Source of the DNA: Paractinoplanes durhamensis
GTDB taxonomy: Bacteria; Actinomycetota; Actinomycetes; Mycobacteriales; Micromonosporaceae
Assembly: GCF_016862175.1 (NCBI RefSeq)
Contig: NZ_BOML01000027.1
Span: 124,001 to 188,000 of the forward strand
Direction of reading: 5' to 3'
Length of the DNA: 64,000 nt
Below, piece by piece: positions 28,701 through 49,815 of this stretch. Position 1 is the stretch's first letter. Each line of letters starts with the position of its first letter. The notes under the pieces were generated by a model, which saw only the letters and a list, made by a program, of their open reading frames with translations, was not told where the DNA came from and searched no databases. Made by a program: the position numbers and the translations under genes.

Positions 28701-29606
28701 ATGAGCTCAGTGAAGGCGCGCGCCTATCTCGGCCCCGAGGACCTGTTCGCGATGCAGCGGATCGTCCAGCGCGAGTGGACCACCAGCAACCGCTGGCACA
28801 TCGGTGATCTCGCCTGGCAGCGGCCGGCCATGCCCGACCTGCGCATCGCGCTGTGGGACGACGCCGCGTGGGCGTGGATCTCGGCACCGGCCCGGCTGGA
28901 GATGCAGGCGCCGGCCGAACTGGCCGGTGCGGTGCTCACCTGGTTCGACGAGGAGACCGGCGGCGGCGAGCAGTCGGTCACCATCATGGACAGCGACAAG
29001 GCCGTCATCGAGGAGCTGACCGCGGCCGGCTACCACCCGGTCGACGGGGACTTCTCCCGGCACTGCCACCGCGAGCTCGACGAGACGCTGCCGGCGCCGG
29101 TGCTGCCGGCCGGCTATCAGGTGCGGGCGGTCCGGCCGGGCGAGCTCGCGGCCCGCGCCGCCGTGCACCGGGCCGCGTGGCGGCCGAAGCGGCTCGGCGC
29201 GATGGGCGTGCCGCCGGTCGACCTCGGCGACGGCGAGTCCGGCATGACCACCGCCCGGTATGCCGACATCATCGGGCACTGGCCCTACCGGTCCGACCTG
29301 GACCAGGTCGTCGAGGCCCCGGACGGCAGCCTGGCCGGGTCGGCGCTGGGCTGGATCGACGAGGTCAACCGGGTGGCCCTGCTCGAACCGGTCGGCGTCG
29401 ACCCGCAGCACGGCCGGCTCGGTCTCGGCGCCGCGGTCAGCCTGGCCTGCCTGCATGCCATGCGCGCGGCCGGCGCCGAGCTGGCGGTGGTCTGCCCGCG
29501 CGGCGACGCCGGTTATCCGGTGCCGCGGCGGCTCTACCACGCGGTCGGCTTCCACGACGCCGGCCGCACCGTCACCTACCGGCGGGGTCAGGGCTCCCAG
29601 AGCTGA
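28701..29606 (+). CDS. Tandem GNAT-like acetyltransferase
   Basis: A 301-residue protein built like two GNAT domains. The N-terminal half is degenerate. The C-terminal half ends with the acetyl-CoA-binding stretch VDPQHGRLGLGAAVSLACL and the YHAVGFHDAGRTVTY finish typical of the family. The substrate is unknown. It begins 10 bp after the response regulator and may share its transcript. Its last 19 bases overlap the convergent protein kinase gene. Confidence 0.82.
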   Translation: MSSVKARAYLGPEDLFAMQRIVQREWTTSNRWHIGDLAWQRPAMPDLRIALWDDAAWAWISAPARLEMQAPAELAGAVLTWFDEETGGGEQSVTIMDSDKAVIEELTAAGYHPVDGDFSRHCHRELDETLPAPVLPAGYQVRAVRPGELAARAAVHRAAWRPKRLGAMGVPPVDLGDGESGMTTARYADIIGHWPYRSDLDQVVEAPDGSLAGSALGWIDEVNRVALLEPVGVDPQHGRLGLGAAVSLACLHAMRAAGAELAVVCPRGDAGYPVPRRLYHAVGFHDAGRTVTYRRGQGSQS

Positions 29607-31249
29607 AGCTCGGTGAACAGCGCGGCCGGCTTACGGACGTCCGGAGAGGACAGGTCGAGCGTGACCCCCGGCTCGGGAACCACTCCCAGGGCCATCTCGC
29701 CGACGAACTGGACGTCGCTGTCGGTGATCGTGATGCTCAGGACCGTGACGGTGTCGACGATGACGGTCAGGTGCCGGTCGACGGCGAAGAGCGTCACGTG
29801 GTGGCTGTCCTGCGGGTCGTTTCCCAGCGAGTAGTACGCGTGGCCCAGCGTCTTCCGGACGGTGTGCGCGGGGGTGTCGAGACCGACGAAGGTGCGGGTC
29901 GTGCACAGGGTCACCCGCTGACTGCCGCGGTCGTTCAAGTGCAGCCAGATCGCGGCGCACGTGTCGCCCTCCGGAATGCGCACGTCCACCGCGACCACGA
30001 CGTTCGTCACCGACGACCCGCCGGGGCAGACGTGGGCCGTGCCCTTGTCCAGCCGGGCGTAGAGACCGGTGGCGATCAGGAAGCAACCGCCGCCGTCGTC
30101 CTCGTGGCTGGCGTCCTGGAACGTCCCCGGGCCGACCAGCGGGTCGGCCAGGGTGAGCGCGGCAAACGCGGGGGTCGGCCCGGCGATCGGCACCGGCACC
30201 GTGTCGGTCGGTTCCACCAGCGGATGTTGTTCGGGCGCGCCGGTGAACGCCTTCATCAGCAGGGCGGTGACCACGGCGACGGCCACGCCGGTGGCGAACG
30301 AGGCGCGCAGCGCGAAGCGGATGCGGTGCCGGCGGGCGGCGGCCGTCCACGCCTGGGAGGCGCCGGACAGGCCGCTGTTGCGGGCGGCCAGCGCGGCCCA
30401 GCGCAGTTGCGGCTGCGCGGCGAAGCCGGCGTCCACCTTCAACAGGGCGTCGAGCAGTTCGTAGGCGGTCGGGCGCCGATCGGGGTCCTTGTCCAGCGCG
30501 GCCGCGATCAGATCCCGCAGCGGGCCGGACAGCCCGGTCAGCGAGGGCGGCTGGGTGAGGATGCGGGCGGCGGTGGCGACCGGCGAATCGGCGGCGAACG
30601 GGGTGCGGCCGGTCGCCGCGTACGCGATGAGCACGCCCCACGCGAAGATGTCCGCCGCCGGGCCGGCCGGCTGCCGGTCCTCGCCGGTGGCGAAGCGTTC
30701 CGGTGCCATGTAGGCGATCGTGCCGACCATCTGATCCGGGTGAGTGAGTTCGGTGCCGGACTCGGCGGCCCGGGCGATCCCGAAGTCGATCACTTTGAGG
30801 GTGCCGAGCGAGCAGAGCACGTTGGCCGGTTTGAGGTCGCGGTGGATCACCCCGGCACTGTGGATCGCGACCAGCGCGGTGGCCACCCCGACCGCGACGC
30901 TGTGCAGGTTGCCGCCGCGCAACGGACCGTTGCTCCGCACCAGCTCACCCAGGTCGGAACCGTCCACGTACTCGACGACCAGGTAGGGCATCGGGTGCTC
31001 GGGGTCGGCGTCGAGGACGGCCGCGGTGCAGAACGGCGGCACCTGCCGGGCCCGGGTGACCTCGCTGCGGAACCGGGCCCGGAACGCCGGATCGGCGGTG
31101 AGCTCGGATCGGATGAGCTTGACCGCGACCCGGCGGCCGTCGAGATCCTGGGCCAGGAAGACCGCGCCCATGCCGCCTTCGCCGAGTCGTGCCAGGAGTT
31201 GATATCCGCCCAGCCGGCGCGGATCGTCCGGCCGCAGTGGTTTGGTCAC
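29588..31249 (-). CDS. Receptor-type Ser/Thr protein kinase (PknB-like)
   Basis: A 553-residue transmembrane kinase. The kinase domain (about 12-275) has glycine loop LGEGGMGAVF, ATP lysine in VAVKLI, HRDLKPANV, DFG in VIDFGIARA and the APE-type MAPERF. One membrane helix lies near 315-335. The extracellular part (about 340-553) is beta-rich with Cys residues (GGCFLI, HVCPGG, DTCAAIW, VTLCTT) and no PASTA repeats. It may sense an external ligand. The start is GTG. Downstream targets are not evident. Confidence 0.92.
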   Translation of the reverse strand: MTKPLRPDDPRRLGGYQLLARLGEGGMGAVFLAQDLDGRRVAVKLIRSELTADPAFRARFRSEVTRARQVPPFCTAAVLDADPEHPMPYLVVEYVDGSDLGELVRSNGPLRGGNLHSVAVGVATALVAIHSAGVIHRDLKPANVLCSLGTLKVIDFGIARAAESGTELTHPDQMVGTIAYMAPERFATGEDRQPAGPAADIFAWGVLIAYAATGRTPFAADSPVATAARILTQPPSLTGLSGPLRDLIAAALDKDPDRRPTAYELLDALLKVDAGFAAQPQLRWAALAARNSGLSGASQAWTAAARRHRIRFALRASFATGVAVAVVTALLMKAFTGAPEQHPLVEPTDTVPVPIAGPTPAFAALTLADPLVGPGTFQDASHEDDGGGCFLIATGLYARLDKGTAHVCPGGSSVTNVVVAVDVRIPEGDTCAAIWLHLNDRGSQRVTLCTTRTFVGLDTPAHTVRKTLGHAYYSLGNDPQDSHHVTLFAVDRHLTVIVDTVTVLSITITDSDVQFVGEMALGVVPEPGVTLDLSSPDVRKPAALFTELQLWEP

Positions 31250-47829: not shown

Positions 47830-47954
47830 CCTGCGACCTCAAGCCGACTTCAGGTCAAGCGCAGGCGTTATCTTTCCGTTACCGAACGGCTGAAATCGGC
47901 CGGGCTCCCGGGGCGTGTTCGAGGCACATCACACCCCCGACAAGGAGTCACCCC

Positions 47955-48611
47955 ATGCGTTCGATCATCGTCGGAGCCGTTGCCCTCGCCGGCGTCGCAG
48001 CACTGTACGGGTGCGCCGGCAACGGGACGGGCACCGCCGCCGCACCGGCCGCATCCGTTGCACCGACCCCGTCCGCTGCGGTTTCCACCGAGGCCACCAG
48101 CGCGCCGGTCAAGGAAGCCGCCACGAAGACGGCCACCAAGACGCCGACGAAGACGGCGAAGCCCGCGAAGGCCGACGTCAGTCAGCTCAAGAAGCTCGGC
48201 ATCACCCTCGACGAGGGCGTTCTGATCGACGTCGCGGACGACGGCGTGGACCGCTTCCTCGCGATCGGCAAGGACGGCGTCGACTTCACCGGCACCACGA
48301 AGACCGACGCGACGATGATGTCGCTGAAGGCGGCGCCGGGCGGCCGGAAGAACCAGGTGCTGATCGTCCCGCCGTTCTGGAACGAGGACCTCGGCGACGG
48401 CTCGTGCGTCGCCGACACCGCCGGCGCCGCCCTGAAGCTGGAGACCTGCGCCACCGGCAAGCCCGCGCAGATCTGGACCGTGGTGCCGGCCGGCGACTCC
48501 GGTCAGTTCGAACTTCGCGGAACGTACGGCATCATCCGGGTCGAGGACGGAAGGATCACGACGGGGGCGAGCGGCCGCACGGGCCTGCAGACCATTACGT
48601 TCGCGAAGTGA
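47955..48611 (+). CDS. Lipoprotein with the exodomain shared by the downstream sigma-factor partner
   Basis: A 218-residue lipoprotein: lipobox ALYGC, then a Ser/Thr/Ala/Lys-rich linker to about residue 75. A beta-rich domain follows with GVLIDVADDGVDR, VDFTG, two Cys (GDGSCVADT, LETCATG) and VVPAGDSGQFELRGTYGI. The last domain is clearly homologous to that of the protein two genes downstream. I do not recognise the domain; its finish resembles ricin-like trefoils loosely. AAGGAG precedes the ATG. Three bases separate its stop from the sigma-factor start. Confidence 0.85.
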   Translation: MRSIIVGAVALAGVAALYGCAGNGTGTAAAPAASVAPTPSAAVSTEATSAPVKEAATKTATKTPTKTAKPAKADVSQLKKLGITLDEGVLIDVADDGVDRFLAIGKDGVDFTGTTKTDATMMSLKAAPGGRKNQVLIVPPFWNEDLGDGSCVADTAGAALKLETCATGKPAQIWTVVPAGDSGQFELRGTYGIIRVEDGRITTGASGRTGLQTITFAK

Positions 48612-48614
48612 ATC

Positions 48615-49109
48615 ATGCGTGATGCCGGGGATTTCGACGCGTTCTACGCGACGTCCTCGCGCCGGGTTCTCGCCCACGTCTCGATGATGGTGGGCAGCCA
48701 GGCCGAAGCCGAGGATGCGGTCGCGGAGGCATATCTGCGCGCCTGGAACCGCTGGTCCAAGATCAGCAAATACGAGAATCCCGAGGCTTGGGTACGCCAG
48801 GTCGCGTACCGCCAAGCGGTAAGCACCTGGCGTAAGGCGGTCAACCGGCTGCACGCCCATCGCAAGGACGACAGCGACCGGCACGTCGAGGCACTGAGCC
48901 CGGACCACGTGGCGATCGTCGCCGCGCTGCGCCGCCTGCCGGCCGATCAGCGCCGGGTGATCGTGCTGCACCACCTGTGCGGCCTGAGCGTGGCCGAGAT
49001 CCACCAGGAGACCGGGATCCCGGCCGGCACCGTGACCACCTGGCTGGCCCGGGGTCGCCGGGCGATGGCCGCCTACCTGACCGACGAGGAGGAGCGCAGC
49101 GATGTCTGA
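48615..49109 (+). CDS. SigE-family ECF RNA polymerase sigma factor
   Basis: A 164-residue two-domain sigma factor. Region 2 (VGSQAEAEDAVAEAYLRAW, NPEAWVRQVAYRQA) binds the -10 element. Region 4 (LRRLPADQRRVIVLHHLCG, AGTVTTWLARGRRAM) binds the -35 element. This is the actinobacterial SigE-like ECF type. It lies between two genes for homologous extracellular domains and overlaps the downstream gene by 8 bp, which implies co-translation with its likely controller. Target promoters are unknown; autoregulation of this operon is probable. Confidence 0.95.
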   Translation: MRDAGDFDAFYATSSRRVLAHVSMMVGSQAEAEDAVAEAYLRAWNRWSKISKYENPEAWVRQVAYRQAVSTWRKAVNRLHAHRKDDSDRHVEALSPDHVAIVAALRRLPADQRRVIVLHHLCGLSVAEIHQETGIPAGTVTTWLARGRRAMAAYLTDEEERSDV

Positions 49110-49815
49110 TGATCCCATCAACCCCGGGCTCCAGGCCTACGCGGATCAGGTCCAGCGCACCGCCCAGCTCGCCCCGGCCGAGGAGATCCGCCGCCGCGGC
49201 GACCGTCGCCGCCGCAACCGCGCGGCCGGTGCCGCCTTCGCCGCGGTCCTGATCGCCGCGGTCGGTGCGGGCGCCCTCCTCGACCGCCGCCCGCAGCGCT
49301 CGGTGACCCCGGTCGGCCCGTCGCCGTCGGTGTCGCTCCCGTCGTCGACGCCGAGCACCCTGCCCAGCTACAAGCCGTCGACCTCGACCCGATCGAAGGT
49401 GACCCAACTGCGCAGCATCGGGGTCGACCTGCAGGTCGGCGTGCTCATCGACGTGGCGGACGACGGCGTGGACCGGTGGATGCAGGCCGGCCCGGACAAC
49501 GTCGTCGACTTCACCGGCTCCACCAAGGACGACACCACCGAGATGTCGCTGCAACCGGCACCGGTGACCGGTGAGAACCGGGTGCTGATCATCCCGGTGG
49601 CGCAGCCCGGCATGTGCGTGACCGACACGCCGCAGGAGCCGCTGGCGCTGCAGCCGTGCAAGGACGGCACCGAGGCGCAGGTCTGGCGGGTGGTGCCGGC
49701 CGGCGATTCCGGTCAGGTCGAGCTGGAGGGCCGCTACGGCATCCTGAAGGTCGACCAGAAACTGATCGGCACCGACCAGACCGGCTGGACCGGGATGCAG
49801 ACGATCAAGTTCTAG
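49102..49815 (+). CDS. Single-pass membrane protein, likely regulator of the ECF sigma factor
   Basis: A 237-residue bitopic protein. About 40 cytoplasmic residues (EEIRRRGDRRRRNRA) lead into one helix (AAGAAFAAVLIAAVGAGALL). A Ser/Pro linker leads to an exodomain homologous to that of the upstream lipoprotein: GVLIDVADDGVDR and VVPAGDSGQ are nearly or fully identical, and the two Cys are conserved (PGMCVTD, LQPCKDG). It lacks the HxxxCxxC of zinc anti-sigma factors. By position it is the best candidate for the anti-sigma or sensor of the preceding sigma factor; this is inference. Confidence 0.88.
   Translation: MSDDPINPGLQAYADQVQRTAQLAPAEEIRRRGDRRRRNRAAGAAFAAVLIAAVGAGALLDRRPQRSVTPVGPSPSVSLPSSTPSTLPSYKPSTSTRSKVTQLRSIGVDLQVGVLIDVADDGVDRWMQAGPDNVVDFTGSTKDDTTEMSLQPAPVTGENRVLIIPVAQPGMCVTDTPQEPLALQPCKDGTEAQVWRVVPAGDSGQVELEGRYGILKVDQKLIGTDQTGWTGMQTIKF

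What the first reader, a model, noticed from the sequence alone, without database searches (positions are those of the whole stretch)
47955..49815. ECF sigma factor sandwiched between two copies of one unrecognised extracellular domain
A lipoprotein, a SigE-type sigma factor and a single-pass membrane protein form a tight operon (3-bp gap, then 8-bp overlap). The two outer proteins share one exodomain, including GVLIDVADDGVDR, VVPAGDSGQ and a conserved Cys pair, but differ in anchoring: a lipid in one, a helix with a 40-residue cytoplasmic tail in the other. The tail lacks a zinc anti-sigma motif. Inference: the membrane copy controls sigma, and the free lipoprotein competes with it for a ligand or pairs with it, giving a decoy-type surface sensor. 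The same sigma would raise both sensor and decoy, a built-in feedback.
Basis: partly seen in the sequence, partly recalled or inferred. Interest (0 to 1): 0.72.

Follow-up and report, generated by a model that had tools for sequence, protein, structure and literature searches.

The report
Sigma factor between twin surface domains
A soil bacterium has a small, apparently self-activating gene switch placed between two relatives of one sugar-lectin-like surface domain, one tied to the switch through the membrane and one free outside; the same layout recurs in its family with other surface domains, which suggests that these sensors work as matched pairs.

Summary
A (probable lipoprotein), an ECF sigma factor, and C (single-pass membrane protein) lie as described, and A and C share one exodomain (53% identity, E 8e-46). 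The domain is not without a known fold: sequence profile and a modest structure model both point to a beta-trefoil of the ricin-B/CBM42 kind. The genes recur as a cassette: the 23 closest sigma orthologues found have C, and 19 of them also have A. In related sigma loci the same layout occurs with other matched domains: a second trefoil-like family and, in two genomes, DUF4232. In all, 69 of 110 sigma loci inspected are matched twins. A promoter TGAAATC-N16-CGTGT precedes A, and its exact form occurs once in the 10.5-Mb genome. A keeps an aromatic loop that 16 of 16 non-homogenised twin C copies lack. That argues against a plain decoy and for a division of labour. Best reading: an autoregulated surface-sensing cassette in which C restrains sigma and A is both the main product and the partner, or ligand-binding half, of C. 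Sigma inhibition, A-C contact and ligand are untested.

The parts
47867..47882 (+). Direct repeat GTTATCTTTCCGTTAC just upstream of the -35; conserved in T1 operons; possible response-regulator box
   Evidence: Such a repeat is present in 12 of 13 T1 loci that have a promoter match, and in 0 of 41 loci with a T2 upstream gene and a promoter match; 0.04 T1 loci expected from shuffles. Likeness to MtrA/GlnR boxes is recalled, not tested.
47891..47918 (+). ECF-type promoter TGAAATC-N16-CGTGT
   Evidence: the only exact match in the 10.5-Mb genome
47955..48611 (+). Gene A: extracytoplasmic twin; signal sequence with probable lipobox LYGC, linker, exodomain
48165..48608 (+). Exodomain of A (probable beta-trefoil)
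   Evidence: profile A1 matches designed trefoils and ricin-type lectins among PDB sequences
48369..48395 (+). A-type aromatic loop PPFWNEDLG
   Evidence: Loop in 19 of 19 A copies, 0 of 16 non-homogenised twin C copies
48615..49109 (+). ECF sigma factor, SigE-like
   Evidence: Pfam r2 and r4 above cut-off; TIGR02983 136.3 bits
49102..49815 (+). Gene C: putative anti-sigma-type membrane sensor
49102..49281 (+). Cytoplasmic tail (about 40 residues, basic, no Cys or His) and transmembrane helix of C
   Evidence: Tail-TM profile recurs just downstream of other ECF sigma genes of this genome; no Cys or His in the first 45 residues
49387..49812 (+). Exodomain of C (probable beta-trefoil, lacks the aromatic loop)
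   Evidence: AlphaFold2 model m7b539bf3eb2c, mean pLDDT 62.7; Foldseek and VIA rows shown are trefoil-bearing proteins

Best explanation
This is a self-contained, autoregulated surface-sensing cassette. C spans the membrane: its basic tail holds the sigma factor (inferred) and its beta-trefoil faces outside. A is a free extracytoplasmic relative of the same trefoil. When the state of the outer trefoils changes (a ligand, probably a glycan, or the amount of A itself: inferred), C lets sigma go and sigma transcribes its own operon from the TGAAATC-N16-CGTGT promoter (promoter shown by conservation, activity inferred). The main product outside the loop is A. I think A is the ligand-binding or partner half that docks with C, not a mere competitor. 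Shown: gene order, homology, probable fold, cassette conservation, matched domains in other cassettes, promoter motif, loop asymmetry. Inferred: sigma inhibition by the tail, A-C contact, ligand, release mechanism.
For: C lies beside the 23 closest sigma orthologues (69-100% identity), found without using the exodomain. The tail-TM module is shared with genes just downstream of other ECF sigmas: of 9 tail matches under E 0.02 in this genome, one is C itself, 7 begin within about 0.3-0.8 kb of a sigma region-2 match on the same strand, and one lies in a frame with stops. Twins are domain-matched within a locus across several domain types: 19 T1, 42 T2, 6 divergent T2 and 2 DUF4232 among 110 sigma loci. 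Receptor kinases of the same family carry both trefoils in tandem, T2 then T1 (12 fused), and in 3 genomes T1 is a separate lipoprotein gene beside the kinase. Promoter: AATC-N16-CGTG upstream of A in 12 of 16 T1 loci scanned, against at most 5 for any such word pair in one shuffle; the exact longer pattern lies at the operon in 12 of 12 genomes searched and occurs once in the own genome. Loop: 19 of 19 A, 0 of 16 non-homogenised twin C. In G216 a second, decayed locus keeps A and the promoter while sigma is missing and C is broken.
Against: No binding, expression or phenotype data. A is dispensable: of the 23 sigma loci, 3 have no A and 1 has a T2 protein in its place. About 15 T1 A-type proteins stand away from a sigma gene of this kind and from the kinases (one of them, in G091, has another ECF-like sigma gene some 1.3 kb off, and those in G203 and G107 lie a few kb from the twin cassette), so A-type proteins can act without C. 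In 22 of 66 automatic twin pairs, all T2, I see no lipobox Cys in the upstream protein (by eye), so a lipid anchor is not essential. Fifteen of the 22 non-self tail matches at E up to 1 are not beside a sigma gene (all but one of them weaker than E 0.02). The structure models are modest (mean pLDDT 62.7 and 64.8). With one mismatch allowed, the promoter pattern exceeds its control (42 against 27 in four genomes), so further targets may exist.
Confidence: 0.45

Rival explanations
1. A is an independent surface effector (for example a glycan-binding lipoprotein) and C only senses the same ligand; the two never touch. The operon is a simple demand-driven switch for A.
For: T1 A-type proteins exist away from such sigma genes in many genomes, with varied neighbours in the ten loci looked at; A keeps the conserved loop; the operon is the only exact promoter match in the own genome.
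Against: Does not by itself explain why twins are domain-matched in T1, T2 and DUF4232 cassettes, nor the kinase tandem and split forms.
Confidence: 0.28
2. Decoy model of the first reader: A competes with C for one ligand and damps the signal.
For: Same domain family outside the membrane; same operon and promoter. In 3 of 19 T1 loci and 3 of 44 T2 pairs the two exodomains look homogenised, as expected if one site had to be kept equal.
Against: In 16 of 19 T1 loci C lacks the A loop. Most T2 pairs are about 50% identical within a locus, while the best A-A and C-C identities between genomes are far higher.
Confidence: 0.15
3. C is not an anti-sigma but another membrane protein of the operon; sigma is controlled by transcription alone, for example through the upstream GTTAY repeat, as sigE is by CseB in Streptomyces.
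For: No zinc motif; conserved GTTAY-N6-GTTAY repeat before the promoter; S. coelicolor sigE is described as lacking an anti-sigma (PMC6767563, passages).
Against: Tail-TM module recurs next to other ECF sigmas; residues 15-65 of C weakly match NCBIfam NF052375 antisigma (18.7 bits, cut-off 100); no two-component gene among the eight neighbours scanned.
Confidence: 0.1

Closest known systems
SigI/RsgI biomass sensors of Clostridium thermocellum (RsgI5 has a C-terminal CBM42)
   Same: Membrane-spanning anti-sigma with an extracellular carbohydrate-binding module, CBM42 in RsgI5; sigma autoregulates (PMC4711584, passages read). CBM42 structures are among the trefoil matches of the exodomain model.
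   Different: SigI is not an ECF sigma; no RsgI N-terminal domain was found in C; the passages read mention no free twin of the ectodomain; SigI targets include cellulosome genes.
SigE-CseABC of Streptomyces coelicolor
   Same: SigE-type ECF sigma encoded with a lipoprotein, CseA, whose loss raises sigE promoter activity (PMC6767563, passages).
   Different: Control is by the CseBC two-component system, the sigE promoter is not a SigE target, there is no anti-sigma, and many SigE targets are listed. A 2026 paper reports no lipoprotein-response regulator-kinase cluster beside 11 SigE-family genes of Actinoplanes missouriensis (PMC13251363, passages).
ECF52 sigma factors (SCO4117)
   Same: Actinobacterial ECF control with an extracytoplasmic carbohydrate-binding domain (PMC8999054, passages).
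   Different: There the binding domain is part of the sigma protein itself; here sigma is free and two separate proteins carry the domain.
Ricin-type beta-trefoil lectins and CBM42
   Same: Predicted fold and the QxW-type repeat with its Cys pair.
   Different: Only one repeat is recognisable by sequence, scores lie under the Pfam cut-offs (14.8 of 25.6; 13.3 of 29), and no sugar binding has been shown.

Membership tests
ECF sigma factor | Sigma-70 regions 2 and 4 only | tested here: met
   PF04542 38.8 bits (cut-off 24), PF08281 56.7 bits (cut-off 25.7); 164 residues
TIGR02983 SigE family | Score at or above the curated cut-off | tested here: not met
   136.3 against 141.55 bits, over almost the full model; close relative, not a formal member
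SigE-CseABC system | Response regulator and sensor kinase next to sigma | tested here: not met
   Eight of the neighbouring genes within 44.4-53.7 kb, the nearest on each side included, scanned with Pfam: PF10609 ParA/NUBPL type, SnoaL, two MFS, F420H2 quinone reductase, SIMPL, ICMT/PEMT, one without match; none is a two-component gene. Other genes of that stretch were not scanned.
Zinc-containing anti-sigma (ZAS) | HxxxCxxC-type motif in the cytoplasmic part (motif recalled) | tested here: not met
   No Cys or His in the first 45 residues of C
RsgI-type anti-sigma | RsgI N-terminal domain | tested here: not met
   No such Pfam match listed at E up to 1
Anti-sigma factor in the functional sense | Binds and inhibits its sigma | not testable with these tools
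   Only gene order and the tail module support it
Beta-trefoil fold | Three-fold arrangement of strand hairpins | tested here: met
   The 50 Foldseek PDB rows shown are proteins I recognise as trefoil-bearing, best E 4.3e-4, 1 row under 0.001; VIA best Z 11.0, rmsd 2.9, 124 aligned; CBM42 Z 10.7, rmsd 3.1, 115 aligned. The model is modest (pLDDT 62.7, ends under 50)
Ricin B lectin (PF00652/PF14200) | Score above the Pfam cut-off | tested here: not met
   13.3 of 29 and 14.8 of 25.6 bits
Lipoprotein (A) | Signal sequence with lipobox | tested here: inconclusive
   LYGC in the window protein (Tyr at -2); a lipobox was found by regex in 14 of 16 T1 A proteins scanned, the window protein and G182 being the misses

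The most novel reading that the evidence does not exclude
Twin-ectodomain signalling is a general design in this family: each unit holds two matched copies of an extracellular binding domain, one wired through the membrane to a sigma factor (or, in tandem, to a kinase) and one free outside. The domain type differs between cassettes (trefoil T1, trefoil-like T2, DUF4232) but both partners change together, and the sigma serves chiefly to set the amount of the free twin, so that the cell measures occupancy or ratio instead of simple presence of a ligand.
Probability: 0.35. Interest if true: 0.78.

Novelty: new variant of a known kind. Interest (0 to 1): 0.6.

Why it matters
ECF sigma systems are usually drawn as sigma plus one membrane anti-sigma. 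Here a third gene, a free extracytoplasmic relative of the sensor domain, is conserved with them and is domain-matched even where the domain family differs. If the two twins work together, this is a two-part receptor on the outside of a Gram-positive cell, with a regulon that may be little more than the receptor itself. It also gives a test bed for asking how surface sensors without a known ligand are wired. The kinases with the same two trefoils in tandem give an independent handle on the same question.

Tried and rejected
Rejected: chance similarity of the two exodomains (E 8e-46). Rejected: a domain of no known fold. Rejected as the main story: steady concerted evolution of the twins. Homogenised pairs look real but are few: T1, G009, G028 and G107 (3 of 19; support 96/87, 100/99, 100/95); T2, G068 and G156 as sister pairs (98 and 96) and G048 by identity (82% within against 74% best elsewhere), all in one clade (92), 3 of 44. 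Fourfold sites agree at 95% against 35% expected in G107 and 88% against 56% in G028. In most other loci the twins are old, diverged copies.

Inconclusive: whether T1 and T2 trefoils are homologous (hhalign E 0.002 at 14% probability, and E 0.015 at 3%), and the fold of T2 itself (no model made; one weak ricin-type Pfam row), although the T2 twins and the first kinase ectodomain are one family (E 1.4e-32).

Led nowhere: PHROGs (two weak unnamed rows), plasmids (no match), profile search of T2 in PDB sequences (one weak row), exodomain outside the family (2 of 296 genomes, both family members). Twins outside the family: of the 29 class loci inspected (L257-L285), two (L257, L273) are family members; among the other 27, nine have related proteins on both sides of sigma, but judged by eye and by the aligned stretches these are membrane protein with membrane protein of the same tail type, not free twin with membrane protein. 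Of 20 further sigma loci of the own genome one (L254) has related flanking proteins, also not a T1 or T2 twin. Ten lone T1 loci share no constant neighbour by eye.

Literature: I found no paper in the held library (open-licence PMC only) that joins these features; the searches were made, seen as listings, with passages read from five papers. Searches looked for RsgI and CseA. One search was malformed.

Rows dropped before counts: one search lists more sigma matches than the 110 loci I inspected, and its list was itself cut by the tool; 3 T1 twins hidden by merged reading frames (G216, G269, G204) were added by hand; exodomains shorter than about 125 residues were left out of the 74; the 46 genomes include two with only a weak partial match (G084, G040) and one with a partial copy (G214). 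L009 and G208 hold the same locus and were counted once; the early tree used L009.

Full report
WHAT IS THERE. A and C share 143 aligned columns at 53% identity, E 8e-46. The sigma protein has regions 2 and 4 above the Pfam cut-offs and is close to, but just under, the SigE-family model. The first 45 residues of C have no Cys or His. The lipobox of A is LYGC, with an unusual Tyr; the orthologue in Paractinoplanes ferrugineus reads LTAC.

WHAT THE DOMAIN IS. Pfam gives only sub-threshold ricin-B matches in the second half of the exodomain. A profile of 32 copies finds designed beta-trefoils (best E 1.1e-4) and mistletoe-type lectins (best E 0.006) among PDB sequences. AlphaFold2 models of the C and A exodomains from four sequences are modest (mean pLDDT 62.7 and 64.8). 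For the C model, the 50 Foldseek rows shown are proteins I recognise as trefoil-bearing (designed trefoils, CBM42, FGF, agglutinins; best E 4.3e-4); the best VIA row has Z 11.0, rmsd 2.9, 124 aligned. The A model was not searched. I call this trefoil T1.

HOW COMMON IT IS. T1 occurs in 46 of 354 genomes of the family, three of them with only partial matches, and in 2 of 296 genomes of a class sample, both family members. Searching with the sigma protein, independently of T1, the 23 closest orthologues (69-100% identity) have C next to them. Nineteen also have A, three have none (G178, G170, G207), and one (G252) has a secreted-looking T2 protein in that place, ending some 280 bp before sigma. 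Among 74 near-complete T1 domains, 19 are A, 23 are C, 12 are fused to kinases and 20 are elsewhere. Of those 20, three lie beside a kinase, one is in each of two decayed cassettes (G216, G206), and 15 stand away from both; of these 15, two lie a few kb from a twin cassette (G203, G107) and one has another ECF-like sigma gene about 1.3 kb off (G091).

THE LAYOUT RECURS WITH OTHER DOMAINS. I inspected 110 sigma loci: the 23 above, 7 more returned with the search and 80 fetched. Sixty-nine are matched twins, that is, homologous ectodomains in the upstream and the downstream gene: 66 by the automatic pair test (E up to 1e-5) and 3 T1 loci added by hand. They are 19 T1, 42 with a second trefoil-like family (T2), 6 with a divergent T2, and 2 with DUF4232 (DUF4232 above the Pfam cut-off in all four proteins). 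The other 41 loci have a recognised domain downstream only (23, some by weak matches), neither (16), T2 upstream with T1 downstream (1, G252), or a contig end (1). A quick sigma tree puts T1 cassettes in one clade (SH-aLRT 99) and T2 twins in another (97), with the DUF4232 twins outside both. A hydrophobic segment is found in 63 of 66 downstream proteins. The anchor of the upstream protein is not constant: a lipobox was found by regex in 39 of 66; of the 27 misses, five have a Cys box by eye or are damaged (window, G182, G342, G038, G115), and 22, all T2, show none.

THE SAME TWO TREFOILS IN KINASES. Twelve receptor kinases carry T2 and then T1 outside the membrane; in three more genomes, this one included (C57), the kinase keeps T2 and T1 is a lipoprotein gene right beside it. 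The kinase T2 and the twin T2 are one family (hhalign E 1.4e-32). Such fusion and fission suggests that a free T1 protein works with a membrane-bound trefoil. This is inference.

THE TAIL OF C. A profile of the tail and transmembrane part (6 sequences), run on the own genome, gives 23 matches at E up to 1. Of the nine under E 0.02, one is C itself, seven begin within about 0.3-0.8 kb downstream of a sigma region-2 match on the same strand, and one is in a frame with stops; the 14 weaker ones are not beside a sigma match. By my arithmetic about 0.4% of positions lie within 1 kb downstream of the 90 sigma matches. So the tail is a module of sigma-linked proteins, which is what an anti-sigma would be; binding is not shown.

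PROMOTER AND REGULON. Upstream of A, AATC-N16-CGTG occurs in 12 of 16 T1 loci scanned and GAAA-N18-CGTC in 38 of 49 T2 loci; the best word pairs in one shuffle reached 5 and 11. In the window it is TGAAATC-N16-CGTGT at 47891-47918. The exact pattern TGMAATC-N16-CGTGT gives 18 matches in 12 genomes: 12 at the operon, one at the decayed second locus of G216 and five elsewhere, against 3 for the reversed control; in the own genome the operon is the only match. Ten of these 12 genomes were among those from which the motif was read, so presence at the operon is expected; the rarity elsewhere is the news. With one mismatch, four genomes give 42 matches against 27 control matches, so a few weaker targets may exist. 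For T2, the exact pattern TGAAACC-N16-CGTCA is found in 6 of 12 genomes, in each at the operon, with three further sites and no control match; the other six have variants or none. In G252 the promoter is of the T1 type, as its sigma is, although its upstream protein is T2. Twelve of 13 T1 loci with a promoter match also have a GTTAY-N6-GTTAY-like repeat before it, and none of 41 loci with a T2 upstream gene has.

HOW THE TWINS DIFFER. All 19 A copies have a loop with two aromatic residues after P-P or P-S (PPFWNED or PPFYNED in most); all 16 non-homogenised twin C copies lack it; the three homogenised C copies have it; 16 of the 20 other T1 proteins have it in full or near form, and the 12 kinases do not. 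Of four C copies without a T1 partner, two keep a partial form (PPAWNE) and two do not. This asymmetry speaks against a simple decoy, which should present the same site, and for a division of labour. Homogenised pairs (3 of 19 T1, 3 of 44 T2) show that the two can also be made alike again, which is the best point in favour of a shared ligand.

READING. I think the cassette senses something at the surface through paired trefoils, that C holds sigma, and that the main purpose of the switch is to set the level of A. The closest mechanistic relative I know of is RsgI5 of Clostridium thermocellum, an anti-sigma with CBM42 (PMC4711584, passages). The closest by gene content is SigE with the lipoprotein CseA (PMC6767563, passages), from which it differs in control and regulon. 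I found no paper in the held open-licence library that describes twin ectodomains around a sigma gene.

Noticed in passing
window 47867-47882: GTTATCTTTCCGTTAC direct repeat upstream of the -35, of a kind kept in 12 of 13 T1 operons and in none of 41 loci with a T2 upstream gene; it recalls MtrA or GlnR boxes (from memory) and could link the cassette to cell-wall or nitrogen control.
   Followed up: partly
L010 3248-5450 (own genome C57), L057, L059; fused forms L056, L060-L062, L064, L097-L103: Receptor kinases with two tandem ectodomains (T2 then T1), and split forms in which T1 is an adjacent lipoprotein gene.
   Followed up: partly
L215, L226: Sigma loci flanked by two DUF4232 proteins, one with a signal sequence and one with a tail like that of C: a function lead for DUF4232.
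   Followed up: partly
22 T2 loci, for example L170, L172-L175, L177, L183, L185-L192: Upstream twins without a visible lipobox Cys while a signal sequence remains, so the free twin is probably secreted or signal-anchored there (by eye).
   Followed up: partly
L096 (G216 C48) and L124 (G206): Decayed cassettes: in L096 A and its promoter are intact while sigma is missing and C is broken; in L124 A is broken and sigma missing while C remains largely readable.
   Followed up: partly
L264, L266, L267, L270, L276, L277, L280-L282; own genome L254: Outside the family (nine loci), and once in the own genome, sigma genes are flanked by two related proteins that look like two membrane proteins of the same tail type, a different kind of duplication.
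   Followed up: no
L047 6488-7168: In G182 the A reading frame shows no signal sequence, so the gene may be damaged or mis-assembled at its start.
   Followed up: no
window 29594-31246 (-): A serine/threonine protein kinase in the same window; its ectodomain did not match the T2 domain of the other kinases.
   Followed up: no
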